Below, piece by piece: positions 11,453 to 56,294 of a stretch of 64,000 bases of DNA (the first letter of the stretch is position 1; every line of letters begins with the position of its first letter). A program made the position numbers and the translations under genes. This stretch comes from Solirubrobacteraceae bacterium (GTDB lineage: Bacteria; Actinomycetota; Thermoleophilia; Solirubrobacterales; Solirubrobacteraceae), in the NCBI GenBank assembly GCA_024711025.1, contig JANJTP010000070.1, positions 62,001 through 126,000 of the forward strand, given 5' to 3'. The notes below the pieces were generated by a model that did not search any database, was not told the origin of the DNA, and saw nothing but the letters and a program-made list of their open reading frames with translations.

Positions 11453-11740
11453 GCCGGCGGTGGCGCGATAGCCGCGCACGGCCGTGCGGCCGGCCTCGAG
11501 CCGCGAAGCGTCCGCGGCGAGCACGCGCATCGCCGAAGCCACCGCGGCCTCGGTCTCGGCCATGGCGACCGCCGCGATGCGCAGCGAGCGCTCGACGGCC
11601 GGCGACGGCGTGGCCGGCAGCGCCTCGCGCAGCGCGGCGGTCTCCTCCAGCACGCAGGAGAGCTCGTCGAAGCGCCCCTCGGCGGCGAGATGGCTCGCAC
11701 GGCCGGCGAGGTCGGCGAGGCGCTCGTATGCCGCGGTCAT
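11426..11740 (-). CDS. FliT-like flagellar chaperone
   Basis: A 104-residue, Ala/Glu-rich, all-helical protein directly after fliS, with which it shares an ATGA overlap. FliT, the FliD chaperone, is small, helical, poorly conserved and usually encoded straight after fliS, so position is the main argument. Residues 1-85 could form two antiparallel helices (YERLADLAGRASHLAAEGRF; VERSLRIAAVAMAETEAAVA). I recognise no catalytic motif. It could equally be called a FlgN-like or unknown helical protein, but a clearer FlgN lies at 19324. Confidence 0.6.
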   Translation of the reverse strand: MTAAYERLADLAGRASHLAAEGRFDELSCVLEETAALREALPATPSPAVERSLRIAAVAMAETEAAVASAMRVLAADASRLEAGRTAVRGYRATAGSSSAVGDR

Positions 11741-12111
11741 GCGCCGGCGACCTCGGCCCAGGCGTCGCGAAGCTCTCCCATCAGCCGGTTGACCGCTTCC
11801 GCGCGCTCGCTGTCTTGGTGCATGCGCGCCTCGAAGAGGTGGCGCCTGAAGAAGAGGTAGAGGCCCTGCAGCCGCTCAGCGACCTCCCCGGCGGACAGAT
11901 CGAGCGTCTCGAGAAGCTCGTCGATGATCGCCTCGGCGCGTCCGAGGCGGTCGCTCGCCACGTCGTGCCGGCCCTCGGCCATCGCGACCGATGCCTGCGT
12001 GAGGAAGCGGCGCGCCCCGTCGTAGAGCAGGACGACGAGTCGCTCGGGCGAGGCGGTGAGGACAGCGCTCTCACGATAGGCGTTCGGGGCGGGGGCGGCG
12101 TAGGCGCTCAT
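11737..12111 (-). CDS. fliS: FliS, flagellin export chaperone
   Basis: FliS binds the flagellin C-terminus and keeps it unfolded for export; in many bacteria it also interacts with FliW. The 124-residue protein has the family pattern NAYRESAVLTASPERLVVLL, then YDGARRFLTQA, and GEVAERLQGLYLFFRRHLFEA. Length is typical. A sigma-28-type promoter lies 25 bases upstream of the start, with a GGAGAG ribosome site. It is followed by the fliT-like gene. Confidence 0.94.
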   Translation of the reverse strand: MSAYAAPAPNAYRESAVLTASPERLVVLLYDGARRFLTQASVAMAEGRHDVASDRLGRAEAIIDELLETLDLSAGEVAERLQGLYLFFRRHLFEARMHQDSERAEAVNRLMGELRDAWAEVAGA

Positions 12112-12197: not shown

Positions 12198-13550
12198 TCA
12201 GCGATTCAGCGACGCGAGCTGGCCGGAGAGCCAGGAGCCCTGCTGCTGCACCTGCGCGAGTGCCGTCTCCATCGCGGCATACGTCTGCTGGAGCCGGGAC
12301 TGCCTGAGCTCCAGCCGTGCGTCCATGCGCTCGAGCGACTTGCCGATGTCCGCGATCCGACGCCCGACCTCTCCGGTGCGGGCATCCATCGCCCCGTCGG
12401 TGCGGACGAGGGGATCGAGCACGGACGTCACGCGGGCGGCGAGACCAGCGGTCGCGTCGGACAGAAAGGCCCGCACGTCGCCGCGGTGGTCGGCGAGCGC
12501 ACTCGACAGCTTCGCGTCATCGATCACGAGCTTGCCGGCCAGCGAGTCGGCCGTAGCCGCACCGCCGGTGGCGGCGCCGGTCGAGATGCCGAGGTCGGAG
12601 AGCCGCTGGATCGAGCCCCCCAGGCCCGAGACATCGGCGACGATGCCGCGCAGGCTGCTGAGCAGGCCCGTGAGCTGCGTGTCCGCGAACAGGACGCCCT
12701 TCTTGGCGTCCGCCGTCGTCGTGGCGGCCGGCACGCGCTTCTCGGAGGTCGCGCCGCGGATCAGGTCGATCGTCTGGTTGTACTGGTCGACGAACGCCTT
12801 GAGCTTGCCCTTGACGGCCTCGGGGTCGGGAGCAGGGGCCGAGACGTTGACCGTCGCCGCACCGAGGCCCTTGAGCGTCAGCTCGACGCCCGGCAGCGCC
12901 GTCGACACGACGTTCGTCGCCGACGTGGCGGCGACGCCGTCGATCGTGAAGGCCGCGTCCGCCCCCGACTTGAACGTCTCGGGGCCGAGCTGCGGGCCGC
13001 CCACCGTGACGGCACCCGGAGCGTAGACGCCGGTCTGCTTGCGCGTGAGCACCAGGCGGTCCGCGGTCCCACCGGCAGAGCCGTCCAGGAACACGGCGTT
13101 GAACGCGCTCGTCGCGCGAGCGTTGATCGCCGCCGCGACCGCGTTGCCGTCGTCGGTTGCCGAGAACGTGAACTGCTCGCCGCCGACGTCGAGCGTGCCG
13201 GCCGCGGCGGTGAAGTCGTAGCTGCGCTGCTCGGCGCGAGCGAGGGCGCTGACCTCGACGACGTAGCCGCCGATCGCCGCCGCACCGGTGCGACGGACGG
13301 CGAGCTTCGTCGTGTCGGAGACGTCGACCGCCTGGGTGTCCGCCCAGGTCGCGGTGGAGGCGAGGTCCTTGGTGGCGGCGAGCAGGCTCCGCAGTCGCGT
13401 CGTGACCTGCCGCAGCGAGTCCTGCCGGGCCTGCTCGACGGTCTCGCTCATCGCGAGGCGCACCCGGGGACGGCGCTCGAGTTGCATGATCTGGTCGATC
13501 AGCGAGGCCGTGTCCAGTCCGGACGCCAGGCCACCGAGCGCGAGGTTCAT
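12198..13550 (-). CDS. fliD: FliD, filament cap protein
   Basis: FliD caps the growing filament and assists flagellin folding. The 450-residue protein has the N-terminal FliD_N motif GLASGLDTASLIDQIMQLER, central beta-rich D2-D3 sequence, and a C-terminal FliD_C region (VSGLGGSIQRLSDLGIS; RVTSVLDPLVRTDGAMDART) ending in a coiled coil with many Gln residues. Length is normal. It overlaps the flaG stop by ATGA, so the two are co-translated. The downstream fliS has a separate promoter. Confidence 0.95.
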   Translation of the reverse strand: MNLALGGLASGLDTASLIDQIMQLERRPRVRLAMSETVEQARQDSLRQVTTRLRSLLAATKDLASTATWADTQAVDVSDTTKLAVRRTGAAAIGGYVVEVSALARAEQRSYDFTAAAGTLDVGGEQFTFSATDDGNAVAAAINARATSAFNAVFLDGSAGGTADRLVLTRKQTGVYAPGAVTVGGPQLGPETFKSGADAAFTIDGVAATSATNVVSTALPGVELTLKGLGAATVNVSAPAPDPEAVKGKLKAFVDQYNQTIDLIRGATSEKRVPAATTTADAKKGVLFADTQLTGLLSSLRGIVADVSGLGGSIQRLSDLGISTGAATGGAATADSLAGKLVIDDAKLSSALADHRGDVRAFLSDATAGLAARVTSVLDPLVRTDGAMDARTGEVGRRIADIGKSLERMDARLELRQSRLQQTYAAMETALAQVQQQGSWLSGQLASLNR

Positions 13551-13912
13551 GGCAGACGCCCCACAGGTCCGGACTGGGTGAGCAGGTCGAGCGCCCGGCC
13601 CGGCGGTATCCGGTCGAGGACACGTCCGTCGAGGTCGCGGATCTCGATGCGAACGTCGCCGTCGTGGATCTCGAAGTGCAGCTCGCGCCCCTGCTCGTGC
13701 AGCTGCCGGATCGCCCGCTGGGCCGCGTCGAGCAGCTCCCGAGCCTCGCGCGGCGGCGCCGCGTCGAGGGATGCGGGGTGGCCTGCACCCGCCTGCCCGG
13801 TCCGCAGCTCTCCTGGGAAGTCGCCGCCGGGCTGCCCCGAATGGATGGGACCGGTCCTCACCGAGGCAAGGGCCGGGCTGAGCGGGGCGGCGCTGCTGAT
13901 GTTCCAGCTCAT
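13547..13912 (-). CDS. flaG: FlaG-family protein
   Basis: FlaG proteins are small cytoplasmic proteins encoded before fliD that affect filament length. The C-terminal part, LHFEIHDGDVRIEIRDLDGR with IPPGRALDLL after it, matches the FlaG pattern of a short beta-domain ending in IPPxxxLxL. The ATG at 13912 (121 residues) is chosen because it lies about 50 bases after the predicted sigma-28 start; a longer frame reaches 14029 but would run through that promoter. The first 60 residues are low-complexity. Confidence 0.75.
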   Translation of the reverse strand: MSWNISSAAPLSPALASVRTGPIHSGQPGGDFPGELRTGQAGAGHPASLDAAPPREARELLDAAQRAIRQLHEQGRELHFEIHDGDVRIEIRDLDGRVLDRIPPGRALDLLTQSGPVGRLP

Positions 13913-13967: not shown

Positions 13968-13994
13968 ATATCGGCGCGATCCCCGAGAAGTTGA
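13968..13994 (-). promoter_or_regulatory. sigma-28-type promoter for flaG-fliD
   Basis: On the minus strand GCTCAA is followed after 15 bases by GCCGATAT, an exact match to the sigma-D style -10 (CCGATAT). Predicted start is near 13961. The site lies just after the glycosyltransferase stop at 14004 and gives a leader of about 49 bases before flaG. Confidence 0.75.
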
Positions 13995-14003
13995 GCCGGG
14001 GTC

Positions 14004-16445
14004 TCATCCGACCACGTGCTCCAGGCCACATTCGGCGGAGCGCTCCAGCTCGCCGATGAGCGAGGACGCCGCGCGGCAGGCCGGATCGAGCGATCCGGCC
14101 TCGCGCGCGAGGGTCAGGGCGTCGTCGAAGATGCCCTTGGCGCGCGCGACGCGCGCCAAGCCGGTGAGCGCGGCGGCGTCGATGCCGTCCTCACGGCAGG
14201 CCGCCGTCCACTCGTCGGCGGCCGAGTCCAGGAAGCCGCGCCGCAGGTAGATGCCGGCCAGCAGCTCGTGGCGCTCGCGTGCCTGCAGCGCGGAGCGCTC
14301 GATCAGCGCCGCGAGCGGCCCGGCCGCGTCGACCTCCCGAACCCGCAGCAGCGCCTCGAGCGCGACGGCCAGCGAAAGCGCGCCCTCGCGCGAGACGACG
14401 TCGGCGCTCGCCCCGGCCGCCGCGCGGCCCCACGCCTCGTAGGCGGCCAGCTCTCCCACCGGGAGGTCGCCGTCGGCAACCACCCCGGTCCGCTGCGCGC
14501 CGGTGAGATCGGCGGCCACGATCCGCGCGAAGAGCTCCGTGCGACGGGCGCTCGACGCGCGCGGATCGCCGGCGGGGACCGCCGCTGCCTCGTCGGCCGC
14601 CTCCGTCCAGCGGCGCAGCGAGAGCAGGCACTCGGCGAGCGCGACGCGCGCCCCGGCGTTGCGCGGCTGGGCGGCGACGACGGCGCGCAGATGCGGCTCG
14701 GCGGCCGCGGCGTGCCCGGCCTCGTAGAGGGCGATCGCGAGCAGGAACCTGGCAGACGGGCCCGGCGTGCCGATCAGCTCGACGATCGCCGCCTCGACGT
14801 CGGGTGCAGCGGCGCCGCTCGCGAGCAGCGCGTCGGCGTACGGGGCGACCGCGCCGGGATAGAGCGGGTGCTCGGTCAGGCAGCGGCGCAGGATCTCGAG
14901 CGTGCTCCGCGTGTCGCCCATCGCCTTGCGCACGTCGGCCAGCCCGACCAGCGCGAGGAAGCTCCCCGCGCCGACCGTCGCCATGTAGCGGCTTGGTGCG
15001 TCGCCCATCTCCAGACAGCGCTCGAAGAGCTCGACGGAGCGTTGGAAATCTCCGGAGCCACCTGCCGCAAGCGCCTGCTCGAGGACGAGGTCGGTGAAGC
15101 CCGGCAGGAAGGACAGCCCCTCGTCGGCCAGCGCGATGGCGTCCTCGGCCCTCCCGACCAGGCGCCGGGCGCGCACGAGCCGCGCGACCAGGGCCGGGAC
15201 GAAGCCGAACGCCTCGCGCTGCGGATCGGCGCGCACGAGGTCCCAGGCACGCTCGAATGTCGCGACGGCCGCCTCGACCTCCCCCGCGGCGCCGTACTCG
15301 GAGCCCAGGTTGAAGTGAAGGAAGATGCTCTCGTCACCTTCGTTCTGCTGGCGCTGCAGCAGCTCGACGTTACGCCGGGCCTTGTCCTTGTCGTGACGCA
15401 CGACGCCGAGGTAGCCGAAGTGGTCGATCCGCACGTCCGAGGCCTCGAGCCGCTCGGGCAGGCCACCCGGGAGCGACTGACCGATCTGCTCGTGGATCCG
15501 GCCCTCGTAGCGGTACTCCGGCCGGTTGCGCAGCAGCCGCAGCGTGTTGTGCGTGACCGCCGTGCCATCGCCGATCTCCCCCGTGTGATTGGTCTCGACG
15601 AGGTAGAACGCCTCGCGCCACGTCCGACCGAGGAGCACCCGCAATCGGGGGGCGTCGCCCTCCACGAGGATCTCGTCGGCGTCGAGCACGAGGATCCAGT
15701 CCCCGGTGGCCGCGTCGAGCGCGACGTTGCGCGCCTGCGCGAACGAGCCGGTCCACTCGCGCTCGATGACGCGTGCGCCGAACGAGCGGGCGATCTCGAT
15801 CGTGCGGTCGGTCGATCCGGTGTCGACGACGACTATCTCGTCGACCGCGGGCCGAGCCGCCGCCAGACAGCGGGGAAGCATCTCCTCCTCGTCCCGCACG
15901 ATCATGCACAGGCTCGCGGTGAGCCCCGAGACGGGCTGGGCACGGCGCGCGCAGGCCCCCGCGCGATAGGCCAGGTCATCCAGGGCGGAGGCGACGCGCG
16001 CCGGCAGTCGGGGTCCCGGCACCCTTGCCGCTCGCCGCCGGCCGGCGGCGACCCGATTGTCCGCGGCGTGGGGAACGGTCGGGCTGAGCCGGAGCGCCGC
16101 GCCGAAGAGGATCTCGGCGGCCGTCCACTGGCCGAGCTCGTAGAGCGCGACGCCCGCCAGGTTCAGGAAGACGGGCTCGCGCGGCTCCTCCTCGAGCAGG
16201 TCGACGGCGGCCTGCGCGACCATCAGCATCCGTTGCGCCACGATCGCCGGCTCGTGCTCTCCGGCGCCCTCGAGCCCGGCCGCGAGCACACCCTTGCGTG
16301 CGGCATACCGCCGATGGCGGTCGGGCTCGACCGCGACCTCCGCGAAGACCCGGCGCCAGCCCGCGAGATCGCGGGCTTCCAGGCATGCCTGGGCGGTCGA
16401 CGTCGCCTGCGCGACGAGGCTCTCGGAATGCTCGGCAGACGACAT
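14004..16445 (-). CDS. TPR-GT2-TPR glycosyltransferase within the flagellar cluster
   Basis: An 813-residue soluble protein with three parts. Residues 1-170 are helical and TPR-like. A GT2 domain (about 175-400) shows SLCMIVRDEEEMLPRCL, VVVDTGSTDRT and the metal-binding stretch LVLDADE. Residues 410-813 are alanine-rich TPR-type repeats (for example FLHFNLGSEYGAAGEVEAAV). Retaining this GT2 plus TPR layout, some family members glycosylate proteins. Lying among flagellar genes behind a sigma-28-type site, it probably glycosylates flagellin or another filament protein; that is inference. The ATG at 16445 is preferred because the promoter lies just upstream. Confidence 0.8.
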   Translation of the reverse strand: MSSAEHSESLVAQATSTAQACLEARDLAGWRRVFAEVAVEPDRHRRYAARKGVLAAGLEGAGEHEPAIVAQRMLMVAQAAVDLLEEEPREPVFLNLAGVALYELGQWTAAEILFGAALRLSPTVPHAADNRVAAGRRRAARVPGPRLPARVASALDDLAYRAGACARRAQPVSGLTASLCMIVRDEEEMLPRCLAAARPAVDEIVVVDTGSTDRTIEIARSFGARVIEREWTGSFAQARNVALDAATGDWILVLDADEILVEGDAPRLRVLLGRTWREAFYLVETNHTGEIGDGTAVTHNTLRLLRNRPEYRYEGRIHEQIGQSLPGGLPERLEASDVRIDHFGYLGVVRHDKDKARRNVELLQRQQNEGDESIFLHFNLGSEYGAAGEVEAAVATFERAWDLVRADPQREAFGFVPALVARLVRARRLVGRAEDAIALADEGLSFLPGFTDLVLEQALAAGGSGDFQRSVELFERCLEMGDAPSRYMATVGAGSFLALVGLADVRKAMGDTRSTLEILRRCLTEHPLYPGAVAPYADALLASGAAAPDVEAAIVELIGTPGPSARFLLAIALYEAGHAAAAEPHLRAVVAAQPRNAGARVALAECLLSLRRWTEAADEAAAVPAGDPRASSARRTELFARIVAADLTGAQRTGVVADGDLPVGELAAYEAWGRAAAGASADVVSREGALSLAVALEALLRVREVDAAGPLAALIERSALQARERHELLAGIYLRRGFLDSAADEWTAACREDGIDAAALTGLARVARAKGIFDDALTLAREAGSLDPACRAASSLIGELERSAECGLEHVVG

Positions 16446-16455
16446 GGCGGACCGG

Positions 16456-16482
16456 TCATCGACACCTGACGACCGTTCTTTA
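16456..16482 (-). promoter_or_regulatory. sigma-28-type promoter for the TPR-glycosyltransferase
   Basis: On the minus strand CCTAAA is followed after 15 bases by GTCGATGA. The predicted start, near 16449, is only about four bases before the ATG, so the transcript may be leaderless. The site lies in the divergent gap shared with fliA. Confidence 0.6.
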
Positions 16483-16532: not shown

Positions 16533-16559
16533 CAAACCAGCGCAACCGGGCGCCGATGG
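16533..16559 (+). promoter_or_regulatory. possible sigma-28-type autoregulatory promoter of fliA
   Basis: CAAA is followed after 15 bases by GCCGATGG (or TCAA after 16). Predicted start is near 16566, about 40 bases before the fliA ATG, which has a GGAG ribosome site. The -35 half is the weakest of the set. If real, the sigma factor stimulates its own gene. Confidence 0.5.
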
Positions 16560-16606: not shown

Positions 16607-17461
16607 ATGGACGCACCGCAGCTCCGTCAGCGCGGCGGCATGGATCCGCTGCAGCCACAGCCCCGCCAACGCTGGATCGCAAGCTCCAGCGCGCAAGACC
16701 TCTGGTACGAGTACCGCCACAGCGGGGACGAGCGGCTGCGCAACCGCCTCGTGATGAGCTACGCCCCGCTCGTCAAGTTCATCGCCTACCGCAAGGCGGC
16801 GGAGCTGCCCGCGAGCTGCGATGTCGAGGACCTCGTCTCGTGCGGCCTGGTGGAGCTGATCGCGGCGATCGACCGCTACGACCCCGAGAAGGGGGCGACG
16901 CTGGAGCAGTACGCGTGGACGCGCATCCACGGAGCGGTGCTCGACCAGCTGCGCAAGCTCGACTGGGCTCCGCGCCCGGTCCGCCGCACCCAGCGCCAGA
17001 TCGAGGTGGCACAGCGCGAGTTCGGCGCGGTCCACCGCAGGCGGGCCTCTTCCGACGAGATCGCCGACATGGTCGGACTGACCGCCGAGGAGCTGCGCCA
17101 GCACGAGCAGCGCCTCGCGACAGCCGACGTCATGTCGCTCAACGAGGTCGTCGGACGCGAGGAGAGCGACCTCAACGTCGAGCGGATCGACACGCTGCTG
17201 AGCTCCGACCACAGGGCCGATCCCGACCGAGCGGCCATCTCGATCGACGCCAAGGCACGGTTCCGCGCCGCATTCGACCGATTGCCTCAGCGCCAGCGCC
17301 AGGTTGCCGTCCTGCTCTACGTCAAGGAGCTGACGCTACGGGAGATCGGCGAGCTGCTCGGCGTGTCCGAGAGCCGCGTCTGCCAGATCCACTCGGAGCT
17401 GCGGCGCTCGCTGCGCTCCTCCCTGGGCGATCACGCGGAGCTGCTCAGCGAGGCCGTGTAG
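16607..17461 (+). CDS. fliA: FliA/WhiG-type RNA polymerase sigma factor (sigma-28)
   Basis: The flagellar sigma factor directs polymerase to late flagellar and chemotaxis promoters. The 284-residue protein has region 2 (RNRLVMSYAPLVKFIAYR, then VEDLVSCGLVELIAAIDRYD and QYAWTRIHGAVLDQLRKLDW), region 3 (RASSDEIADMVGLTAEEL) and region 4 (LPQRQRQVAVLLYVKELTL then GVSESRVCQIHSE), with no region 1 or extracytoplasmic traits. The ATG at 16607 has GGAG eight bases upstream; a longer frame from 16556 crosses the predicted promoter. No anti-sigma FlgM gene is visible in the window. Confidence 0.94.
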   Translation: MDAPQLRQRGGMDPLQPQPRQRWIASSSAQDLWYEYRHSGDERLRNRLVMSYAPLVKFIAYRKAAELPASCDVEDLVSCGLVELIAAIDRYDPEKGATLEQYAWTRIHGAVLDQLRKLDWAPRPVRRTQRQIEVAQREFGAVHRRRASSDEIADMVGLTAEELRQHEQRLATADVMSLNEVVGREESDLNVERIDTLLSSDHRADPDRAAISIDAKARFRAAFDRLPQRQRQVAVLLYVKELTLREIGELLGVSESRVCQIHSELRRSLRSSLGDHAELLSEAV

Positions 17462-17568: not shown

Positions 17569-17595
17569 TAAAGGATGGCGGACCGCCGCCGATCA
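17569..17595 (+). promoter_or_regulatory. sigma-28-type promoter for the flgF-to-csrA operon
   Basis: GCTAAA is followed after exactly 15 bases by GCCGATCA, the closest match in the window to TAAA-N15-GCCGATAA. The predicted start, near 17602, falls within a few bases of the ATG at 17604, so the first gene is probably translated without a leader. Confidence 0.78.
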
Positions 17596-17603
17596 CCGGG
17601 CCC

Positions 17604-18284
17604 ATGGATCGCGGGCTATACATCGCCGCCTCGGGGATGGTCGCCGAGATGGCGCGCCAGGACACGCTCGCCAACGACCTCGCCAACGCCTCCACCCCCG
17701 GCTACAAGAGCGATCGCGTCGCGCAGGCGAGCTTCGGCGAGCTCCTGCTCGCCGACCGCTCGTCGGGCGCCGCCGTCGGTCCGCTCGGGCTCGGTGCCGA
17801 GATCCGCCGGCAGGTCACCGACCTCTCGCCCGCGGCGGTGCGCGACAGCGGCGAGCCGCTCGACTTCGCGATCGAGGGCGAGGGCTTCTTCGCCGTCAGC
17901 ACACCCCAGGGCGTGCGCCTCACCCGCAACGGGCAGTTCTCGGCCTCCGCGCGCGGAACGCTCGTCACGGCCGAAGGACACGAGGTGCTGGGCCCCGACC
18001 GCAGACCGGTCGCGGTACGCGACGGCGCCGTGGACGGCACCCGGATCGGGGTCTTCGCCGCGTCCGACGCCCGCAAGGCCGGCGACAACCTCCTTGCGGG
18101 CACGACCTCCGGCGCCGCGACCGGCCGCGTGCGCGCGGGGGCGCTCGAGGCCTCGGGCGCCGACCCCGTCCGTGCCATGGTCGAGATGATCGCCTCGCTG
18201 CGCGCCTTCGAGTCCGGGCAGCGCGTGATCACGACGATCGACGGCACGCTCGGGAAGGCCGTGAACCAGGTCGGCGCGCTCTAG
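17604..18284 (+). CDS. flgF: Flagellar basal-body rod protein, FlgF/FlgG family (first copy)
   Basis: A 226-residue rod protein of the FlgF/FlgG family. It starts MDRGLYIAASGMVAEMARQD with LANDLANASTPGYKSD after it, and ends GALEASGADPVRAMVEMIAS with a terminal helix. It is more divergent than the second copy at 18315, so FlgF (proximal) is the likelier name; in Bacillus the pair is FlhO/FlhP. The ATG lies almost at the predicted transcript start, with no ribosome site, suggesting leaderless translation. The middle domain (LDFAIEGEGFFAVSTPQG) is intact. Confidence 0.85.
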   Translation: MDRGLYIAASGMVAEMARQDTLANDLANASTPGYKSDRVAQASFGELLLADRSSGAAVGPLGLGAEIRRQVTDLSPAAVRDSGEPLDFAIEGEGFFAVSTPQGVRLTRNGQFSASARGTLVTAEGHEVLGPDRRPVAVRDGAVDGTRIGVFAASDARKAGDNLLAGTTSGAATGRVRAGALEASGADPVRAMVEMIASLRAFESGQRVITTIDGTLGKAVNQVGAL

Positions 18285-22128: not shown

Positions 22129-22557
22129 ATGACCGAGACCGTGGAGAGCACCCGCTTCGGCACCCTCGAGGTGCCGCCCGAGGCGGTCGTCGAGTTCCCC
22201 AACGGCCTGATCGGCCTGGCCGGCAGGCGCTGGGCCCTCGTGCCGCACGACGAAAGCGGGACCTTCCTCTGGCTGCACTCGCTCGAGGACCCGGCGCTGG
22301 CGCTCCCGGTGACGAGCCCGTGGCGCTTCTTCGCCGACTACGAGGTGGAGCTCTCCGACGCGGAGGCGGAGCGCATCGGCGTCGCGGACCCGCGTGAGGC
22401 GCAGGTCTATGTCACGGTCCGCCCGGAGAGCGGCGAGGGCCGCTTCAGCGCGAACCTGCGCGCGCCGATCATCGTGGCCGGCGACCGCGGCTACCAGGTG
22501 ATCAACGGCGCGGGCGACGCCGCGGTGCGCACGCCGCTGTTCGGCTCGGCCGCCTGA
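22129..22557 (+). CDS. fliW: FliW, flagellar assembly factor
   Basis: FliW binds flagellin and, when freed from it, binds CsrA and relieves CsrA repression of flagellin mRNA. The 142-residue protein has the family pattern TRFGTLEVPPEAVVEFPNGL, IGLAGRRWALV, FLWLHSLEDPALALPVTSPW and LRAPIIVAGDRGYQVI. The ATG at 22129 gives the normal length. It sits directly before csrA, the arrangement known from Bacillus and Campylobacter relatives, which argues for the same partner switch here. Confidence 0.93.
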   Translation: MTETVESTRFGTLEVPPEAVVEFPNGLIGLAGRRWALVPHDESGTFLWLHSLEDPALALPVTSPWRFFADYEVELSDAEAERIGVADPREAQVYVTVRPESGEGRFSANLRAPIIVAGDRGYQVINGAGDAAVRTPLFGSAA

Positions 22558-22586: not shown

Positions 22587-22811
22587 GTGCTCAGGATCAG
22601 GCGCCGCGTCGGCGAGCGGATCGTGATCGGCGACGGGATCATCGTCGAGATCATCGGCGTCGAGCCGAACGCCGTCCGCATCGGGATCGACGCGCCCCGC
22701 GACGTGCCGGTCTACCGCGAGGAGCTGTGGAAGGCCGTCCAGGCCGAGAACCTCGCGGCAGCCTCCCCCGACGTCCGCCTGCCCGCCCCGGACGATCCGC
22801 CGGCAGGCTGA
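22587..22811 (+). CDS. csrA: CsrA, RNA-binding translational regulator
   Basis: CsrA binds GGA-containing hairpins in mRNA leaders and blocks translation, typically of flagellin. The 74-residue protein begins (GTG) MLRIRRRVGERIVIGDGIIV and has VRIGIDAPRDVPVYREELW, the RNA-binding core. The first residues usually read MLVLTRK, so this copy is somewhat divergent. The C-terminal 20 residues are Pro/Ala-rich. It closes the fliA-side operon and is followed by two hairpins. Confidence 0.93.
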   Translation: MLRIRRRVGERIVIGDGIIVEIIGVEPNAVRIGIDAPRDVPVYREELWKAVQAENLAAASPDVRLPAPDDPPAG

Positions 22812-22866
22812 CGGCCCCACTCCGATGCGCCCGCGCCGTCCGTCGGGCCGCGGGGCGACTGACGCC

Positions 22867-22918
22867 GAGCGGCCGGGCCCCCGGCCGCTCGTGCGCTCCT
22901 CGCCATCCGGCTGGCGAG
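22867..22918 (+). terminator. Two tandem hairpins after csrA
   Basis: The first hairpin has perfect ten-base arms GAGCGGCCGG and CCGGCCGCTC around GCCC (22867-22890). The second has seven-base arms CTCGCCA and TGGCGAG around six bases (22899-22918). They separate the flagellar operon from the wzt gene. No long T-run follows, as is common in very GC-rich genomes. Confidence 0.65.
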
Positions 22919-22936
22919 TCTGCGACCCTTTCGCGC

Positions 22937-24187
22937 GTGCCTGAGACCGTCACGCGGCCGGCGGCCGTCGTGGTCGACGGCGTGTCGAAGACGTTCACGC
23001 TGCCCACCGAGAAGGTCCACACGCTCAAGGAGCGTGCTCTGCACCCGTTCCGCCGCGCGGGCTCCGAGCGCCTCGTGGCGCTGCGCGACGTCTCGTTCGC
23101 CGTGGACCAGGGCGAGTTCTTCGGGATCGTCGGCCGCAACGGATCGGGCAAGAGCACGCTGCTGAAGTGCCTGGCCGGCATCTACGCCGTCGATGCCGGC
23201 GGCCTCTACATCAGCGGTCGCCTGTCGACGTTCATCGAGCTCGGAGTCGGCTTCAACCCCGACCTCGCGGCGCAGGACAACGTGACGATCAACGGCGTGA
23301 TGATGGGCCTCACCCCGCGAGAGGCGCGCGAGCGCTTCGAGCGCGTGATCGCGTTCGCCGAGCTCGAGGAGTTCGTCGACATGAAGCTCAAGAACTACTC
23401 GTCCGGCATGCACGTGCGCCTGGCGTTCTCGGTCGCGATCCAGGTCGACGCGGACGTGCTGCTGATCGACGAGGTGCTGGCCGTCGGCGATGCCGCCTTC
23501 CAGCAGAAGTGCTTCGACGTCTTCTACCGGATGCGTGACGAGGGCCGCACGGTGCTGCTCGTCACGCACGACATGGGCGCGGTCACGCGCTTCTGCAACC
23601 GCGCGGTGCTGCTCGACCACGGACGAGTCGTCGACTTCGGCGACCCCGAGCAGGTCGCGCGCAGCTACCTCGAGCTGAACTTCGGCGTGGGACAGGAGGC
23701 CCAGGATCCGGCGCAGGAGGGCGGCGTGGCCGACGATCGCAGCGGCGACGGCGCCGCCGAGATCGTCGACGCCTGGTTCGAGGACTCGCACGGGCAGCGC
23801 GTGGAGACCCTCGGCCAGGGCCGGGCGGTGAGCTTCCGCGTCCGTGCGCGCTTCGCCGAGCGCGTCGAGCACCCCGTGCTCAGCGTGCTGTTCGAGGACG
23901 CCGGCCACCATCCGCTGTTCGCTACGTCGACCGAATGGGGCGCGATCGAGACAGGGGTCGTCAAGGCCGGCGAGTCCGTCGCCTTCCGCGCCGCGTTCGA
24001 CGTGCCGTTCGCTCCGGGGCGCGTCTTCGCGACGCCGGTCATCGCATATCGCGGCGCCGGCGCCAAGCTGATCGACCGTCGCGAGCGGCTCGTCTCCGCC
24101 GTCGTCACCGGCACCCACCACTCCGGCGGCCTCGTCATGGTGCCGCATGACGTCGCCTTCGAGCATGCCGCGGAGGGAGAGCGGTGA
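22937..24187 (+). CDS. wzt: Wzt-like polysaccharide ABC transporter ATPase
   Basis: The ATP-binding subunit of a polysaccharide exporter. The 416-residue protein has Walker A GRNGSGKST (66-74), signature NYSSGMHVRLAFSVA, Walker B VLLIDEVLAVGD, and the switch His in LLVTHDMGAV. Residues from about 270 to the end form an extra beta-rich domain like the Wzt C-terminal domain, which in O-antigen systems reads a chemical mark at the glycan end. GTG start. The permease gene follows. Substrate is unknown; the neighbouring glycosyltransferases suggest a cell-surface glycan. Confidence 0.88.
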   Translation: MPETVTRPAAVVVDGVSKTFTLPTEKVHTLKERALHPFRRAGSERLVALRDVSFAVDQGEFFGIVGRNGSGKSTLLKCLAGIYAVDAGGLYISGRLSTFIELGVGFNPDLAAQDNVTINGVMMGLTPREARERFERVIAFAELEEFVDMKLKNYSSGMHVRLAFSVAIQVDADVLLIDEVLAVGDAAFQQKCFDVFYRMRDEGRTVLLVTHDMGAVTRFCNRAVLLDHGRVVDFGDPEQVARSYLELNFGVGQEAQDPAQEGGVADDRSGDGAAEIVDAWFEDSHGQRVETLGQGRAVSFRVRARFAERVEHPVLSVLFEDAGHHPLFATSTEWGAIETGVVKAGESVAFRAAFDVPFAPGRVFATPVIAYRGAGAKLIDRRERLVSAVVTGTHHSGGLVMVPHDVAFEHAAEGER

Positions 24188-24224
24188 GCTCGTGGGCACG
24201 ACCAGCGCGCCGGGGGGGAAGACG

Positions 24225-25154
24225 ATGAGCTCGCCGTCGACGGCCGCGCGCGAGCCCGGCGCCCAGGCGGGAGCCGAGGCGGCGATCGCCCAGGCGGCGC
24301 GCGCGGCGCGCGCCGCCGCCACCGGGCGCAACGACGCGATCCACGGCCCGGCCGCGATCGGCGTGCCGCTGCGGAGGTTCGCGGCGCTCGTCTGGACGAT
24401 CGCCGTGAGCGACTTCAAGCTGCGCTTCTACGGCTCGGCGCTCGGCTACCTCTGGCAGCTCGTCCACCCGCTCCTGCTGTTCGGCGTCCTCTACCTCTTC
24501 TTCACGCAGATCCTGCGCTTCCCCGACGTCGAGTTCTACCCCGTCGTGCTGCTGCAGGGGATCGTCGTCTTCACGTTCCTCTCACAGGCGACGAGCGGCG
24601 CGGTCGGATCGCTGGTGGAGAAGGAGATCCTCGTCCGCAAGATCCAGTTCCCGCGACTGGCGGTGCCGTTCTCAGTGGTGCTGACGGCCTTCTTCACGCT
24701 CGCGATGAACTACGTCGTCGTCTTCCTCTTCCTGCTGATCCAAGGCGGCGGACCGCACCTCACGTGGCTCTGGGAGCTGCCGCTGATGCTGCTGGCGCTG
24801 ACGGTCCTGGCGACGGCGATCGCGTCGCTGCTGGCGGCGCTCTACGTGCGCTACCGCGACGTGCGGCCGATCTGGGAGGTGGTCCTGCAGGCGCTGTACT
24901 TCGTCTCGCTCGTGCTGATCCCGATCGAGGCGGTCACGAACGACACGCTCGCCAAGCTCCTGCTGCTCAACCCGTTCGCCTGCATCGTCCAGCAGCTCCG
25001 CCACGCGGTCGTCGACCCCAGCGCGCCGTCGACGCTCGACGTCCTCGGCGACCCGCTCCTGCTGGCGATCCCGATCGCGATCTTCGCCGTGATCGTCGTC
25101 GTCGCGTTCAGGACCTTCGACCGCATGGCGCCGAAGATCGCCGAGGAGCTGTAG
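24225..25154 (+). CDS. wzm: Wzm-like polysaccharide ABC transporter permease
   Basis: The membrane subunit of the exporter, 309 residues with about six helices (for example LLFGVLYLFFTQIL, VVFLFLLIQ, LMLLALTVLATAIASLLAAL). It has the ABC-2 family segments FKLRFYGSALGYLWQLVHPL and YVRYRDVRPIWEVVLQALYF. The first 50 residues are Ala-rich and cytoplasmic. The ATG at 24225 is chosen; a GTG at 24192 would add 11 residues and lies closer to the wzt stop. Confidence 0.86.
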   Translation: MSSPSTAAREPGAQAGAEAAIAQAARAARAAATGRNDAIHGPAAIGVPLRRFAALVWTIAVSDFKLRFYGSALGYLWQLVHPLLLFGVLYLFFTQILRFPDVEFYPVVLLQGIVVFTFLSQATSGAVGSLVEKEILVRKIQFPRLAVPFSVVLTAFFTLAMNYVVVFLFLLIQGGGPHLTWLWELPLMLLALTVLATAIASLLAALYVRYRDVRPIWEVVLQALYFVSLVLIPIEAVTNDTLAKLLLLNPFACIVQQLRHAVVDPSAPSTLDVLGDPLLLAIPIAIFAVIVVVAFRTFDRMAPKIAEEL

Positions 25155-31959: not shown

Positions 31960-33207
31960 ATGCGCCGCAGGCTCGGCGCGCTGCTGAACGGCGCCGATCG
32001 CGCCCGCCTGCGCGCCCTGCTCCGCCGCCCCGCGCCCGGGCCGCTGCGGATCTTCACGCCGACCGGCCTGATGGACGTGCTGCGCGAGGGCCCGGCGCCG
32101 CTGGAGCGCGGAGGCGCCGCCGGCGACGGGCCGCTGCGCATCGGCATCGTCGTGCCGTGGTTTCGCGAGGGCAGCGGCGGCCACGGGACGATCGCCAACC
32201 TCGTGCGCGGCCTCGAGACCCGCGGCCATCGCTGCGAGCTGTACGTGCTCGACGACGAGGGCCGCCACGCCGGCCGATCGGCCGAGCAGGTGGCCCGGAG
32301 CTTCGCGAGCTTCTTCGGGCCGCTCGCCGCCCAGGTGCACTTCGGCCTGGGCGACTGGACGGGAGCCGACGTCGCCGTCGCGACCGGGTGGCAGACCGTC
32401 CCGGCGGTGCTGCGCCTGCCGGGCGCGGCGGCGCGCGCGTATCTCGTGCAGGATCACGAGCCCGACTTCCACGGTGCCTCGGCCGAGCGCGAGTGGGCGG
32501 CCTGGACGTACCGCCAGGGCCTGCGCCACATCGCCGCCTCGCATTGGCTGGACCGGCTGCTGCGCGAGCGGTACGGGAGCGCGGGAAGCGCGTTCGACCT
32601 GGCCGTCGACCACGAGCGCTACGCGCCGCCGGCCGGCGGCGAGCGGCGACGCGGCGACCTCGTCGCCTTCTACGCGCGCCCGTCCACTCCGCGCCGCGCG
32701 ACGGCGCTCGGCCTGCTCGCGCTGGGCGAGCTGCGCCGTCGCCGACCGGCCGTCGAGATCGCCCTGTTCGGCGAGTCGCGGGAGATCGCCACGTCGTTTG
32801 CGGCCCGCCGGCTCGGGGTGCTCGACGGCCCGGCGCTCGCGCGGCTCTACGGCGAGGCGACGTGCGGCATGGTGCTCTCGCTGACCAACCCCTCGCTGGT
32901 GCCGCTCGAGATGCTCGCCTGTGGCCTTCCGGTCGTCGACGTGGCGAGCGACAGCATGCGCGGCGAGTTCGGCCCGGACGGGCCGATCGCGCTCGCCGAG
33001 CCGGATCCGCTCGCGCTGGCCGATGCGCTCGAGCGGCTGCTCGACGACCCGGATGCCCGCGCTCGACGCTCCGCGGCCGGGCTCGCGATGGTCGCCGGGC
33101 GGACCTGGGCTGCGGCCGCCGCGCAGGTCGAGGCGGGTCTGCGCGCGGCGGTGGGCGAAGCATGGCCACAGGTCGCGCGCCGCGCCGCCGTCGACGGCAC
33201 GGACTAG
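31960..33207 (+). CDS. WsaF-like rhamnosyltransferase (GT4-type)
   Basis: A 415-residue protein. The block LRIGIVVPWFREGSGGHGTI followed by ANLVRGLETRGHRCELYV, and AYLVQDHEPDFHGASAERE, is the pattern of WsaF-type transferases of S-layer glycan rhamnan synthesis. The C-terminal half has LVAFYARPSTPRRATALGL and LTNPSLVPLEMLACGLPVV. Rhamnose as substrate is inferred from family and from the nearby rfbC. It starts one base after the previous stop. Confidence 0.82.
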   Translation: MRRRLGALLNGADRARLRALLRRPAPGPLRIFTPTGLMDVLREGPAPLERGGAAGDGPLRIGIVVPWFREGSGGHGTIANLVRGLETRGHRCELYVLDDEGRHAGRSAEQVARSFASFFGPLAAQVHFGLGDWTGADVAVATGWQTVPAVLRLPGAAARAYLVQDHEPDFHGASAEREWAAWTYRQGLRHIAASHWLDRLLRERYGSAGSAFDLAVDHERYAPPAGGERRRGDLVAFYARPSTPRRATALGLLALGELRRRRPAVEIALFGESREIATSFAARRLGVLDGPALARLYGEATCGMVLSLTNPSLVPLEMLACGLPVVDVASDSMRGEFGPDGPIALAEPDPLALADALERLLDDPDARARRSAAGLAMVAGRTWAAAAAQVEAGLRAAVGEAWPQVARRAAVDGTD

Positions 33208-52382: not shown

Positions 52383-53540
52383 ATGCGGATCTGCCTGGCC
52401 TACGACTGCCTCTACCCGTGGACCGTCGGCGGCGCCGAGCGCTGGTACCGCGGCCTCGCCGAGCGCCTGGCCGCGGACGGGCACGAGATCACGTACCTGA
52501 CGCGCCGCCAGTGGGGGGCGGCCGACCCGCCGCGCATCCCCGGGGTGCGCGTGATCGCCGTCTCGCGCGGCGACGAGCTCTACGGGCCGGACGGGCGTCG
52601 CCGGATCGGACCGCCGCTGCGCTTCGGGCGCGGCGTGCTCGGCCACCTGCTGCGCCACGGACGCCGCTACGACGTCGTGCACCTCGCCTCGTTCCCGTAC
52701 TTCTCCGTGCTCGCCGCGGCGGCCGCACGCCCGCTCGGGCGCTATCGGCTGGTCGTCGACCACCACGAGGTCTGGAGCCGCGAGTACTGGTGCGACTACC
52801 TCGGGCCGCTCGGCGGCGCGCTCGGCTACGCGGTGCAGCGGCTCTGCGTGCGCGTGCCCCAGCAGGCCGTCTGCTTCTCGCGCCTGCACGCCGGGCGCCT
52901 GCGGGCGGAGGGGCTTCGCGGCGAGCCGATCGTGCTCGACGGCGAATACGCCGGCGACCTCGCGCCGCCCCGCCCCCGCCACGCGGAGCCGCTGGTGCTC
53001 GTCGCCGGCCGCCAGATCCCCGAGAAGCGCACGGCGGTCGCCGTCGCCGCGATCGCCCGGGCACGCGCTCGCGGCCTGGACGTCCGCGGGCTGATCCTCG
53101 GCGACGGCCCCGACCGGGCGCTCGTGCTCTCCGAGATCGCCGCTCACGATCTCGAGGACGAGGTCGAGGCGCCCGGGTTCGTCGACCGCGAGGTCGTCGA
53201 CGACGCGCTGCGCCGCGCGCTCTGCCTGCTGCACCCCTCGGCGCGCGAGGGCTACGGGCTGATCGTCGTCGAGGCCGCGGCGCAAGGCACGCCGTCGGTT
53301 GTCGTCGCCGGTCCCGACAACGCCGCCGTCGAGCTGGTGGAGCCCGGCGTCAACGGCCTCGTCGCCCCGTCGCCCGACCCGGACGAGCTGGCCGACGCGC
53401 TCGTCGCGATCGCCGACGCCGGGCTGCCGCTGCGCGAGCGCACATGCGCCTGGTTCGCAGAGAACGCCGAGCGCCTGTCGCTCGACGCCTCGCTCGACGT
53501 CATCGCCGCCGGCTACGAGGGTGGGCCGGCGCATGGCTGA
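52383..53540 (+). CDS. GT4-family glycosyltransferase
   Basis: A 385-residue GT4. It begins RICLAYDCLYPWTVGGAERW with the acceptor-side loop, has the nucleotide-binding stretch LVLVAGRQIPEKRTAVAVAA, and the E-x7-E motif SAREGYGLIVVEAAAQGTPS. Length and layout are normal. Donor and acceptor are unknown. The GT2 gene downstream overlaps by eight bases. Confidence 0.9.
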   Translation: MRICLAYDCLYPWTVGGAERWYRGLAERLAADGHEITYLTRRQWGAADPPRIPGVRVIAVSRGDELYGPDGRRRIGPPLRFGRGVLGHLLRHGRRYDVVHLASFPYFSVLAAAAARPLGRYRLVVDHHEVWSREYWCDYLGPLGGALGYAVQRLCVRVPQQAVCFSRLHAGRLRAEGLRGEPIVLDGEYAGDLAPPRPRHAEPLVLVAGRQIPEKRTAVAVAAIARARARGLDVRGLILGDGPDRALVLSEIAAHDLEDEVEAPGFVDREVVDDALRRALCLLHPSAREGYGLIVVEAAAQGTPSVVVAGPDNAAVELVEPGVNGLVAPSPDPDELADALVAIADAGLPLRERTCAWFAENAERLSLDASLDVIAAGYEGGPAHG

Positions 53541-54387
53541 CCTCGATGTCGGCGCGGCGCCGCCGGCGACCGGGGGGCCGCCCGGCTCCCCGCCGCGCGT
53601 CTCGGTCCTGATCGGGGCCTACGACAACGCCGCCACGCTCGCCGCGGCGATCGACGCCGTGCTCGGCCAGACGGTGAGCGACCTCGAGCTGATCGTCATC
53701 GACGACGGCTCGACCGACTCGAGCGCATCGATCGCACGTGCGGCGGCGGCCGCCGACCCGCGCGTGCGCGTGCTGTCGATGGGCCGCAACGTCGGCATCT
53801 CGCGCTCGCTCAACGAGGGGCTTCACGCGGCGCGAGCGCCCGTCGTCGCCGTGCAGGACGCCGACGACACGTCCGAGCCCCGCCGCCTGGAGCGCCAGCT
53901 CGCGGTGCTCGACGGCGCCCCGGACGTCGCCGTCGTCGGCTGCCGGATGCGCGAGGTCGACGAGCTGGGAGCCGAGCTGACGCCGCGGACCGCGTTCGCG
54001 GCGGGCGACGTGCGCGCCGCGCTGCTGCGCTTCAACCCGATCCCCAACTCGAGCGCCGCCTTCCGCCGCGACGTCGCGATCGAGCTCGGCGGCTACGACC
54101 CGCGCTATCGCTACGCGATGGAGTACGACCTCTGGCTGCGGATCGCCGAGCGTCATCGCGTCGTCGCGCTCGACGAGCTGCTCGCGACCCGCCGGATGAG
54201 CCGAACGAACGTCGCCGCGCGCAAGGAGCGCGCGCAGATCGCCGAGTCGATCGCGATGCGCCTGCGGGCGCTGCGCCGCCGGCGCAGCCTGCGCGGCGCG
54301 GCGTGGCTCGCGGTCCCGGCGCTCTCGTACGTGACGCCGCTGCCGCTCAAGCGCGCGCTGCGCCGGCGGCTCGGGATGGCGCCGTGA
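53533..54387 (+). CDS. GT2-family glycosyltransferase
   Basis: A 284-residue GT2 with RVSVLIGAYDNAATLAAAID, LELIVIDDGSTDSSASIARA and the metal site VVAVQDADDTSEPRRLE, then YAMEYDLWLRIAERHRVVAL. ATG at 53533 is chosen because it overlaps the previous stop. Its last 41 bases overlap the end of the convergent GT4 gene on the other strand, an unusually long tail-to-tail overlap. Confidence 0.9.
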   Translation: MADLDVGAAPPATGGPPGSPPRVSVLIGAYDNAATLAAAIDAVLGQTVSDLELIVIDDGSTDSSASIARAAAAADPRVRVLSMGRNVGISRSLNEGLHAARAPVVAVQDADDTSEPRRLERQLAVLDGAPDVAVVGCRMREVDELGAELTPRTAFAAGDVRAALLRFNPIPNSSAAFRRDVAIELGGYDPRYRYAMEYDLWLRIAERHRVVALDELLATRRMSRTNVAARKERAQIAESIAMRLRALRRRRSLRGAAWLAVPALSYVTPLPLKRALRRRLGMAP

Positions 54388-55417
54388 GGCCGAGCGCGGC
54401 TTCGTAGGCGGCCCGGACCCCCTCGCGCAGACGCCCGACCGTGAACTCCCCCGCCACCCGCTCGCGCGCCGCCGCACCCAGCGCCGCGCGGCGCTCCGGC
54501 TCGCGGGCCAGGCCGCCGAGCGCCGCGGCGAAGGCGTCCACGTCGCCGGCGGGCAGCACGATCCCGGCGTCGCCGACCGCCTCGGGGTTGCCCGGCCCGT
54601 CGGCGACCACCATCGCCAGCCCGTGGCCCATCGCCTCGAGCACCGCGAACGAGATGCCCTCGCGGCGCGAGGGCAGGACGAAGATGTCCGCGGCGGCGAG
54701 CAGGCGCTCGGGATCGGATCGGAAACCGAGCGCTCGGACGCCGGGGCCGGCGGCGTCGTGGACCTGCGCCGCCAGCGGGCCCTCTCCGGCCACGAGCAGC
54801 TCGAGCGGGGCCCCGCCGGACACGGCGGAGCGCGCGGCGCGGACGGCGGTGAGCGGGTCCTTGCGCTCCTCGAGCTGACCGAGGAACAGGGCGGCGGCGA
54901 CGCCGGGCGCGAGGCCGAGCTCCGCGCGGGCCGCGGCGCGCAGGCCCGCGTCCGGCGAGATCGGCGCGATGCCGTTGGGAACGACCGCGAGTCGCGAGTG
55001 CAGCGCCGGCGGCACGAGCGCGCTCAGCTCGCTGCGCTCGGCGGCCGAGCAGCAGAGCGTGACCGAGGTGCGGGCGACGGCCGCCCTCGCGCCGGCGACG
55101 ACCGCACGGGCCGCCGGGCCCTGCGCCCGTCGCAGCAGGTGCAGGCCATGCGTCGTCCACACCGAGGGACGGCGACCGAGCAGCGGCAGGGCGAGGATCG
55201 CCGCCGCGTCGCCGTGGGCGTGGACGACGCTCGCGCGGCGCGCGCGCAGGGCGATCCGCGGCCACTGGGCGGCGATCGACGGCGCCGCCCTCAGCGGGGA
55301 CCGCGCGGCGCTGAGCGCGACGCGCTCCTGCTCGAATCCCTCCAGCCCCTCCAGCAGGTCGAGGTAGGTCTCGGCGCCGCCGCCGCGGTGGGGCAGGACG
55401 TGGAGGACGGCGGACAC
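54347..55417 (-). CDS. GT4-family glycosyltransferase
   Basis: A 356-residue GT4 with AVLHVLPHRGGGAETYLDLL, VVPNGIAPISPDAG, ALFLGQLEERKDPLTAVRAA and the E-x7-E motif SRREGISFAVLEAMGHGLAM. It is shorter at the N-terminal end than some GT4s but the fold parts are all there. GTG start. It follows the methyltransferase gene at 55436 after an 18-base gap. Confidence 0.88.
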   Translation of the reverse strand: MSAVLHVLPHRGGGAETYLDLLEGLEGFEQERVALSAARSPLRAAPSIAAQWPRIALRARRASVVHAHGDAAAILALPLLGRRPSVWTTHGLHLLRRAQGPAARAVVAGARAAVARTSVTLCCSAAERSELSALVPPALHSRLAVVPNGIAPISPDAGLRAAARAELGLAPGVAAALFLGQLEERKDPLTAVRAARSAVSGGAPLELLVAGEGPLAAQVHDAAGPGVRALGFRSDPERLLAAADIFVLPSRREGISFAVLEAMGHGLAMVVADGPGNPEAVGDAGIVLPAGDVDAFAAALGGLAREPERRAALGAAARERVAGEFTVGRLREGVRAAYEAALGLTAPSRAAGAARA

Positions 55418-55435
55418 GGTCGCCGAAGGGCGCGG

Positions 55436-56257
55436 CTAGGAGACGCGCCGCGCGACGACGATCTTCGTCGACGGCCCGGTGCGCGCCAGGCGCATCGCCA
55501 CTCGATCGAGCGCGTACAGCGTCGAGCCGACCACCGCGCCGAGTCGCTCGCGTGGGCCGACGCCCATGTTGAGCGCCTCCCAGTAGCGAAACGCGAGCCG
55601 GTAGGTCCCCGGCCGGCGCGTGTCGATCGTGTTCGCCAGCAGGCAGGTGGCGGGGGTGAGCGACTCGAGCCGCAGCCCGGCGGCCGCGAGGGCATCGGTC
55701 CACTCGCCCAGCGGCCGGGCCTTGCTGTTCGAGCTCTCGTCGAACGGCCGCCCCCACCAGCGATGCACGACCACCGGCTCGGTCAAGAGCAGCACGCCGC
55801 CGGGGGCGAGCGCGGCGCCGAGGTTGGCCACGGCGCGCCGGAAGCGCTCCTCGTCGGTGATGTGGAGCAGCACGCTCATCGCCGAGATCGCGTCGAGCTC
55901 GCCCAGGCCGCCCGGCAGGCGCTCGGCGCCGACGTCCGCCTGCTCGAAGCGGATGCCCGGGAGCCGCTCGCGGAGCCCCTCGACGGCCGCCTGCGTCAGG
56001 TCCAGCCCGATGATCTCGCCTGCCCCGCGCCGCTGCCAGAAGTCGATCCAGTAGCCGGTGCCGCTGCCGACGTCGAGCACGCGGCGCGGCGCGCCGACGC
56101 CGGCGCGATCCAGCGCGGCCGCCGCCGCGACGGCCACCGACCGGTAGAACAGCCGGTTGAACGACGCGGACAGGCCCTGGTAGCCGACGCCACGAAGCGA
56201 GTACTTGCCGCCGAGCAGGCTCTCCCAGTAGGCGCGGGCCTCGTAGGTCGCGTTCAT
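55436..56257 (-). CDS. SAM-dependent methyltransferase
   Basis: A 273-residue class I methyltransferase: VLDVGSGTGYWIDFWQRRG, IIGLDLTQAAVEGLRERLPG, DAISAMSVLLHITDEERFRR and APGGVLLLTEPVV. It probably modifies a sugar. ATG at 56257, eight bases after a TAGACT -10 in a symmetric divergent promoter shared with the next gene. Confidence 0.87.
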   Translation of the reverse strand: MNATYEARAYWESLLGGKYSLRGVGYQGLSASFNRLFYRSVAVAAAAALDRAGVGAPRRVLDVGSGTGYWIDFWQRRGAGEIIGLDLTQAAVEGLRERLPGIRFEQADVGAERLPGGLGELDAISAMSVLLHITDEERFRRAVANLGAALAPGGVLLLTEPVVVHRWWGRPFDESSNSKARPLGEWTDALAAAGLRLESLTPATCLLANTIDTRRPGTYRLAFRYWEALNMGVGPRERLGAVVGSTLYALDRVAMRLARTGPSTKIVVARRVS

Positions 56258-56294
56258 GGCGGGGAGTCTAAGTGGGCGCCTAGACTCCCCCGCC
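56258..56294. promoter_or_regulatory. Symmetric divergent leaderless promoters
   Basis: The 37 bases between two divergent start codons form a dyad: GGGGAGTCTA (56261-56270) and TAGACTCCCC (56281-56290), perfect over ten bases around a ten-base spacer. Each arm supplies a TAGACT -10 eight bases before its own start codon. Neither gene has room for a ribosome site. Confidence 0.6.

What the first reader, a model, noticed from the sequence alone, without database searches (positions are those of the whole stretch)
14004..16482. Sigma-28-controlled TPR-glycosyltransferase inside the flagellar cluster
A GT2 flanked by TPR-type repeats has its own flagellar promoter and lies between flaG and fliA. 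This points to post-translational glycosylation of filament protein in an actinobacterium, with the TPR part as protein-substrate reader.
Basis: inference. Interest (0 to 1): 0.55.

Follow-up and report, generated by a model that had tools for sequence, protein, structure and literature searches.

The report
Flagellin sugar-transferase in flagellated soil actinobacteria
A large enzyme encoded among the flagellum genes of an actinobacterium very probably attaches a sugar to the flagellum's filament protein; the idea is known from Listeria and clostridia, but the version here has extra parts and is carried by almost every flagellated relative examined.

Summary
Window 14004-16445 (minus) encodes one 813-aa protein: N-terminal TPR, a GT-A/GT2 domain with intact DxD, and a long C-terminal TPR superhelix (AlphaFold pLDDT 93.8). 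Its own sigma-28 promoter lies at 16456-16482 and is conserved upstream of orthologs.

In the order, 43 of 151 genomes have a long ortholog; all 43 have a flagellin-family hit (42 a flagellin proper), and 0 of 102 genomes without such a hit have it. Where gene and flagellin share a contig (30 of 43) they lie within 42.3 kb; in three genomes it follows flagellin after about 200 bp. Four flagellated genomes lack it; in the two inspected, the cluster is otherwise syntenic, so it is an accessory.

The closest solved relative is GmaR, the Listeria flagellin O-GlcNAc transferase (profile E 2.8e-51). Best reading: cytoplasmic O-glycosylation of flagellin before export, with a housekeeping nucleotide sugar and TPR as substrate reader.

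New here: the N-terminal TPR module, the spread through flagellated members of this order, and an N-terminal tag Met-Ala-Leu-Arg-Leu (30 of 33 loci) resembling the flagellin start. The window's own protein lacks the tag. Verdict: new variant of a known kind.

The parts
14004..16445 (-). TPR-GT2-TPR protein, 813 aa, putative flagellin O-glycosyltransferase
16456..16482 (-). sigma-28 type promoter TAAA-N15-GTCGATGA; 10 nt lie between the -10 box and the ATG, so the transcript is probably leaderless (inference)
15942..16442 (-). N-terminal helical/TPR module, residues 2-168
   Evidence: AlphaFold model, Pfam TPR_2 at 93-123
15420..15917 (-). GT-A/GT2 catalytic domain, residues 177-342
15675..15683 (-). 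D255-A256-D257, DxD motif; both Asp invariant in 36 aligned homologs
15489..15494 (-). H318-E319 of the HEQ motif (H318 invariant, E319 in 90% or more of 36), kept in GmaR (HEQ) and SunS (HEE); catalytic role inferred
14031..15407 (-). C-terminal TPR superhelix, residues 347-805
13547..13912 (-). FlaG-like protein (start chosen by eye)
   Evidence: PF03646 E 0.013, below cut-off; syntenic in G123 and G117
13968..13994 (-). sigma-28-like site (2 mismatches) before flaG, just downstream of the glycosyltransferase stop
12198..13550 (-). FliD filament cap
11737..12111 (-). FliS flagellin chaperone
16533..16559 (+). sigma-28-like site (3 mismatches) before fliA, divergent from the glycosyltransferase promoter
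16607..17461 (+). FliA/WhiG-family sigma factor
22129..22557 (+). FliW, last flagellar gene recognised on this side

Best explanation
The gene encodes a cytoplasmic protein glycosyltransferase for the flagellar filament. Sigma-28 (FliA/WhiG) switches it on together with flagellin. The GT2 domain takes a common nucleotide sugar, most likely UDP-GlcNAc or another UDP-hexose, and attaches it O-linked to Ser/Thr of flagellin before FliS-assisted export. The N- and C-terminal TPR arrays hold the flagellin chain and set specificity. Shown: gene, domains, intact DxD signature, promoter match and its conservation, exclusive co-occurrence and linkage with flagellin in the order. Inferred: substrate, sugar, order of events, TPR as reader.
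For: GmaR catalytic domain is the best solved-structure match (phmmer E 3.1e-36; profile E 2.8e-51); GmaR's C-terminal construct (7x9r) also matches over its TPR part (E 1.3e-23). SunS and ThuS, peptide S-glycosyltransferases, are the best folds (Z 25-27). All 43 long orthologs of 151 genomes sit in genomes with a PF00669 hit (42 with a flagellin-class one; in G121 the only hit looks like FlgL), 0 of 102 genomes without one; in four genera with both states in the sample (g1, g8, g13, g14) the gene follows the flagellum. 30 of 43 share a contig with flagellin, all within 42.3 kb, 19 within 15 kb. In G069, G027 and G075 the gene follows flagellin on the same strand after about 170-220 bp, and in G259 of another order after about 120 bp. 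Promoter conserved. No sugar-nucleotide biosynthesis gene among the cluster genes scanned (not every gene of the cluster was scanned), which fits a housekeeping donor. [quoted passage not shown]
Against: No direct evidence of a glycan. Four flagellated genomes with FliD lack the gene (G060, G117, G147, G123). At phylum level 10 of 37 genomes with a homolog at E<=1e-20 have no PF00669 hit at that threshold, among them three of eight from the same class outside this order (G445, G454, G463). Ser/Thr fraction of the exposed flagellin segment does not differ between genomes with and without the gene (0.259 in 36 vs 0.240 in 5). 58 of the 80 homolog loci fetched show no FliC, FliD or FliS hit in the DNA held, so the wider family has other roles.
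Confidence: 0.78

Rival explanations
1. It glycosylates another flagellar protein (FliD cap, FlaG-like protein or a hook-associated protein) rather than flagellin.
For: In this genome it lies beside flaG-fliD, and flagellin is 36 kb away.
Against: In four genomes of two orders it follows flagellin directly; the GT2-TPR relative GmaR modifies flagellin (PMC9638930, passages).
Confidence: 0.1
2. It is an envelope-polysaccharide enzyme that happens to sit in the flagellar cluster.
For: Wzt/Wzm-type exporter genes start just after fliW at 22.7 kb, and other glycosyltransferase genes lie at 32 kb and 52-60 kb; many homologs elsewhere are not near flagellin.
Against: Strict co-occurrence with flagellin in the order, conserved sigma-28 promoter, TPR arrays on both sides.
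Confidence: 0.06
3. Its main role is regulatory, like the antirepressor half of GmaR, with glycosylation secondary.
For: Relative of GmaR, long helical C-terminus, divergent from fliA.
Against: No MogR DNA-binding domain (PF12181) found in the genome (the control genomes gave no match over the cut-off either, so sensitivity is unproven); the profile match to 7x9r covers chain 8-244 of 503 only; both DxD Asp invariant in 36 homologs.
Confidence: 0.06

Closest known systems
GmaR (Listeria monocytogenes), flagellin O-GlcNAc transferase and MogR antirepressor
   Same: GT2 domain followed by TPR; best sequence match in PDB; flagellar role (PMC9638930, passages)
   Different: GmaR has its GT domain at the N-terminus (about 180 residues, PMC9638930) and no TPR module before it; no MogR domain found here; in the tree GmaR falls in a Bacillota flagellin-linked clade (97*) and this protein in a separate clade (98*), not supported as sisters
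GT2-TPR flagellin glycosyltransferases predicted in Clostridium (PMC13317340, passages)
   Same: GT2 plus TPR beside flagellin, same predicted role
   Different: there among other flagellar glycosylation genes; here alone, with its own sigma-28 promoter
FlmG (Caulobacter crescentus)
   Same: N-terminal TPR that binds flagellin plus a glycosyltransferase domain (PMC7591256, passages)
   Different: FlmG has a GT-B domain and adds pseudaminic acid; here GT-A/GT2 and a second, C-terminal TPR array
SunS/ThuS glycocin S-glycosyltransferases
   Same: best structural matches, same GT2 fold with following helical repeats
   Different: small bacteriocin substrates (recalled); NCBIfam SunS model 57 bits against cut-off 350

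Membership tests
GT2 (GT-A) glycosyltransferase, Pfam PF00535 | Match over curated cut-off and DxD motif | tested here: met
   74.1 bits vs 23.3; D255 and D257 invariant in 36 homologs
GmaR | GT2 domain followed by TPR region homologous to GmaR | tested here: met
   22ao E 2.8e-51 and 7x9r E 1.3e-23, chain 8-244
GmaR | C-terminal antirepressor domain | tested here: inconclusive
   profile match stops at chain residue 244 of 503; Foldseek aligns 489 columns, TMt 0.54, rmsd 8.8
GmaR | Partner repressor MogR present | tested here: not met
   PF12181: no match at E<=1 in a genome 97% complete; no control genome over the cut-off
GmaR | Clusters with GmaR in a tree of GT domains | tested here: not met
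   separate starred clades, quick method; relation between them unresolved
GmaR | Transfers GlcNAc to flagellin | not testable with these tools
   needs mass spectrometry or enzyme assay
SunS (TIGR04195) | Score over the curated cut-off | tested here: not met
   57 bits vs 350
FlmG | GT-B fold glycosyltransferase domain | tested here: not met
   domain is GT-A/GT2 by Pfam and fold
Sigma-28 regulon | Intergenic TAAA/GCCGATAA promoter with <=2 mismatches within 200 bp of the start (criteria of PMC8325347, passages) | tested here: met
   2 mismatches, 10 nt before the ATG
Sigma-28 regulon | Transcription start mapped and dependent on FliA | not testable with these tools
   needs RNA data

The most novel reading that the evidence does not exclude
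The conserved N-terminal pentapeptide Met-Ala-Leu-Arg-Leu is a flagellin-like address: a flexible tether that sends the enzyme to the same chaperone or export-gate site as flagellin (start Met-Ser-Leu-Arg-Ile-Asn), so that glycosylation is coupled to export. The window's own protein would have lost the tag.
Probability: 0.15. Interest if true: 0.72.

Novelty: new variant of a known kind. Interest (0 to 1): 0.5.

Why it matters
I found no report of flagellin glycosylation in this group: the listings (titles and opening abstracts) of five searches of a partial, open-access library show none (one search listed 20 of 36 papers and 8 of 19; one search found no paper), and a genomic survey of actinobacterial flagella has no word beginning 'glycos' in its main text (PMC10746217). 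If right, cytoplasmic flagellin O-glycosylation is common in the flagellated members of this order, with a natural control set: relatives with the same cluster minus this gene. Two TPR arrays around a small GT2 domain are a tractable system for how a glycosyltransferase chooses a whole-protein substrate.

Tried and rejected
Flagellin composition: the Ser/Thr fraction of the exposed segment does not separate genomes with and without the gene (41 of 45 genomes tried, those of G096, G139, G144 and G146 were missed by the motif filter; the five without the gene include the orphan flagellin of G024). Inconclusive.

Flagellin mimicry by the tag: conserved as amino acids with free synonymous codons in 30 of 33 loci (start codons were set to the tag where it occurs in frame; two are TTG). 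Of 7 further loci 4 carry it, one with Met as fifth residue; the other 3 of the 43 ortholog genomes were not looked at. Of six homologs from the same class outside this order, four carry Met-(Ala/Gly)-(Leu/Ile)-Arg-Ile and two have Lys for Arg, one of these with a GTG start. In the loci scanned, the printed hits to this start pattern (ATG, at least 100 aa, codon-composition filter) read as flagellins or this enzyme only (the ORFs screened were not counted). Against mimicry: in genus g13 flagellins have lost the Arg (MALYVN, MSLFIN and others) while the enzymes keep it. AlphaFold gives the tag of L064 low confidence (pLDDT about 37), so docking cannot be judged.

GmaR orthology: not claimed. 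G024 and G073 as counter-examples: dropped, they have no FliD hit; near G024's flagellin no flagellar structural gene was recognised in the 14 kb held. PF00669 also matches FlgL, so 'flagellin-positive' can mean FlgL alone, as in G121 and perhaps some phylum rows. Three of the 43 ortholog matches show one stop inside the match (G150, G111, G075), and some are cut or split.

The homolog set is capped (80 kept of at least 584) and includes three close orthologs. Plasmids: 223 records with partial matches, none covering 80%. Viral contigs and the viral fold library were not searched.

The co-occurrence p value (1.3e-31) ignores shared ancestry; the four within-genus contrasts are the fair part and alone give only 1 in 16. 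The degenerate promoter consensus was chosen after seeing sequences; one search repeats the test with the canonical one. Gene starts come from a simple caller of my own. The 'flagellar' labels were set by me: ortholog rows of this order were all labelled so, also those on a contig without flagellin, and rows without flagellar DNA in view were labelled 'other'.

Full report
What is there. The window is G000:C15:62001-126000 of a 3.1-Mb genome. The closest named orthologs include Solirubrobacterales MAGs (L064, L065), so the class is taken to be Thermoleophilia (inference). The gene runs 14004-16445 on the minus strand and codes for 813 aa. Pfam finds GT2 at 178-268 and TPR matches before and after it. 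AlphaFold2 with 36 aligned sequences gives pLDDT 93.8 and pTM 0.87: helical N-terminal module (2-168), GT-A domain (177-342), C-terminal superhelix (347-805). It is the only full-length copy in the genome; one weak partial match follows at E 9.8e-8.

Promoter. TAAA-N15-GTCGATGA lies at 16456-16482, with 10 nt between the -10 box and the ATG. Three other sites in this cluster leave 8-9 nt (flgF at 17604, and the CHAP and EAL/HDOD genes next to flagellin), which suggests leaderless transcripts; flagellin, fliS and flgB leave 31-66 nt. In 33 ortholog loci, the window's own included, the canonical consensus is met with <=3 mismatches in 16 of 33 and with <=4 in 28 of 33, against 1.2% and 5.8% of 9900 control windows. 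The flaG-like gene downstream has a site of its own (13968-13994), so the enzyme is probably transcribed alone (inference).

Distribution. In 151 genomes of the order, 52 have some match at E<=1e-10; 43 have the long one (E<=1e-130), the other 9 only weak matches. A PF00669 hit is found in 49 of 151. All 43 are among the 49 (in G121 the hit looks like FlgL); 0 of 102 genomes without a hit have the gene. Six positive genomes lack it: G024 and G073 have no FliD hit; G060, G117, G147 and G123 have one. In G123 and G117 the flaG-like gene is followed by fliA, here turned to the other strand, and the stretch from FliF to FliW is otherwise in the same order, so the gene is dispensable for having the cluster. 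In genera g1, g8, g13 and g14, which hold both kinds of genome in the sample, the gene follows the flagellum. In the phylum sample of 346 genomes, 27 of 51 PF00669-positive and 10 of 295 negative genomes have a homolog at E<=1e-20; 19 of the 27 have both on one contig, 16 of them within about 22 kb.

Linkage. In the order 30 of 43 genomes have gene and a flagellin on one contig: 19 within 15 kb, all within 42.3 kb; for 13 no flagellin-class hit on the same contig is listed. In G069, G027 and G075 the gene follows flagellin after about 170-220 bp, and in G259, from another order, flagellin (MALRINNN...) is followed after about 120 bp by the enzyme (MAIRISQ...).

Relatives. By sequence the best solved match is GmaR; by fold SunS and ThuS. 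Of 80 loci fetched, three of them close orthologs, 22 hold a FliC, FliD or FliS hit in the DNA held. In a GT-domain tree of 101 rows (quick method), this protein belongs to a clade of 15 from this order and two further families of the class (98*), GmaR to a clade of 10 flagellin-linked Bacillota enzymes (97*); their relation is unresolved. Homologs of a third family of the same class (f5) fall outside, with other actinobacteria (95*). The flagellin-linked label needs 11 changes against 32 for shuffled labels. No MogR domain was found. So it works like GmaR's catalytic half, but membership in GmaR is not claimed.

Mechanism. GmaR transfers GlcNAc to flagellin, and its authors propose that TPR recognises flagellin (PMC9638930, passages). 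[quoted passage not shown] GT2-TPR proteins are already predicted as flagellin glycosyltransferases in Clostridium (PMC13317340, passages). With no sugar-nucleotide genes among the cluster genes scanned, a housekeeping donor such as UDP-GlcNAc is the simplest guess (inference). Sigma-28 co-expression and a protein without export features that I recognised place the reaction in the cytoplasm before export (inference).

The tag. 30 of 33 ortholog loci start Met-(Ala/Gly/Pro)-(Leu/Ile)-Arg-(Leu/Ile), with four codons used for Ala2, five for Leu3 and four for Arg4, while residues 6 and 7 vary freely. This points to selection on the peptide. It is absent from the window's protein, which starts MSSAEHSE. 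It resembles the flagellin start (MSLRIN). Evidence that it mimics flagellin is mixed (see Tried and rejected); its function is unknown and it is the most novel feature.

Noticed in passing
L006-L034, L040, L054, L062 (first five codons of the gene): Conserved N-terminal peptide MALRL before a variable stretch; similar to the flagellin start; lost in the window's own protein.
   Followed up: partly
window 16456-16482, 17569-17595; L003 8017-8043, 8679-8705: Four sigma-28 sites leave only 8-10 nt before the start codon, so these transcripts are probably leaderless.
   Followed up: partly
L144, L145, L150 (genomes G117, G060, G147): Genomes of 7.1-7.7 Mb of genus g15 carry runs of 5 to 9 tandem flagellins of 278-287 aa in the stretches read and lack the glycosyltransferase.
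   Followed up: partly
L067 6899-12046, L071 6821-12007, L159: In other actinobacteria the homolog is the end of a frame of about 1,720 aa near flagellin (just downstream in L067 and L071); the start of the L159 frame reads like a second GT2 domain.
   Followed up: no
G024 C21:4173-4589 (L146): Flagellin gene without recognised flagellar structural neighbours in a genome with no FliD hit: an orphan flagellin.
   Followed up: partly
genus g1: The window's genome (3.1 Mb) is the only one of the 8 sampled of its genus with a flagellin hit; the others are 1.6-2.1 Mb.
   Followed up: no
window 22727-25154, 31960-33207 and 52383-59709: Wzt/Wzm-type polysaccharide exporter genes follow fliW; other glycosyltransferase genes lie further on.
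   Followed up: no
G000:C70:47006-47128: FlgM-like anti-sigma factor (E 1.7e-6) on another contig than the flagellar cluster.
   Followed up: no
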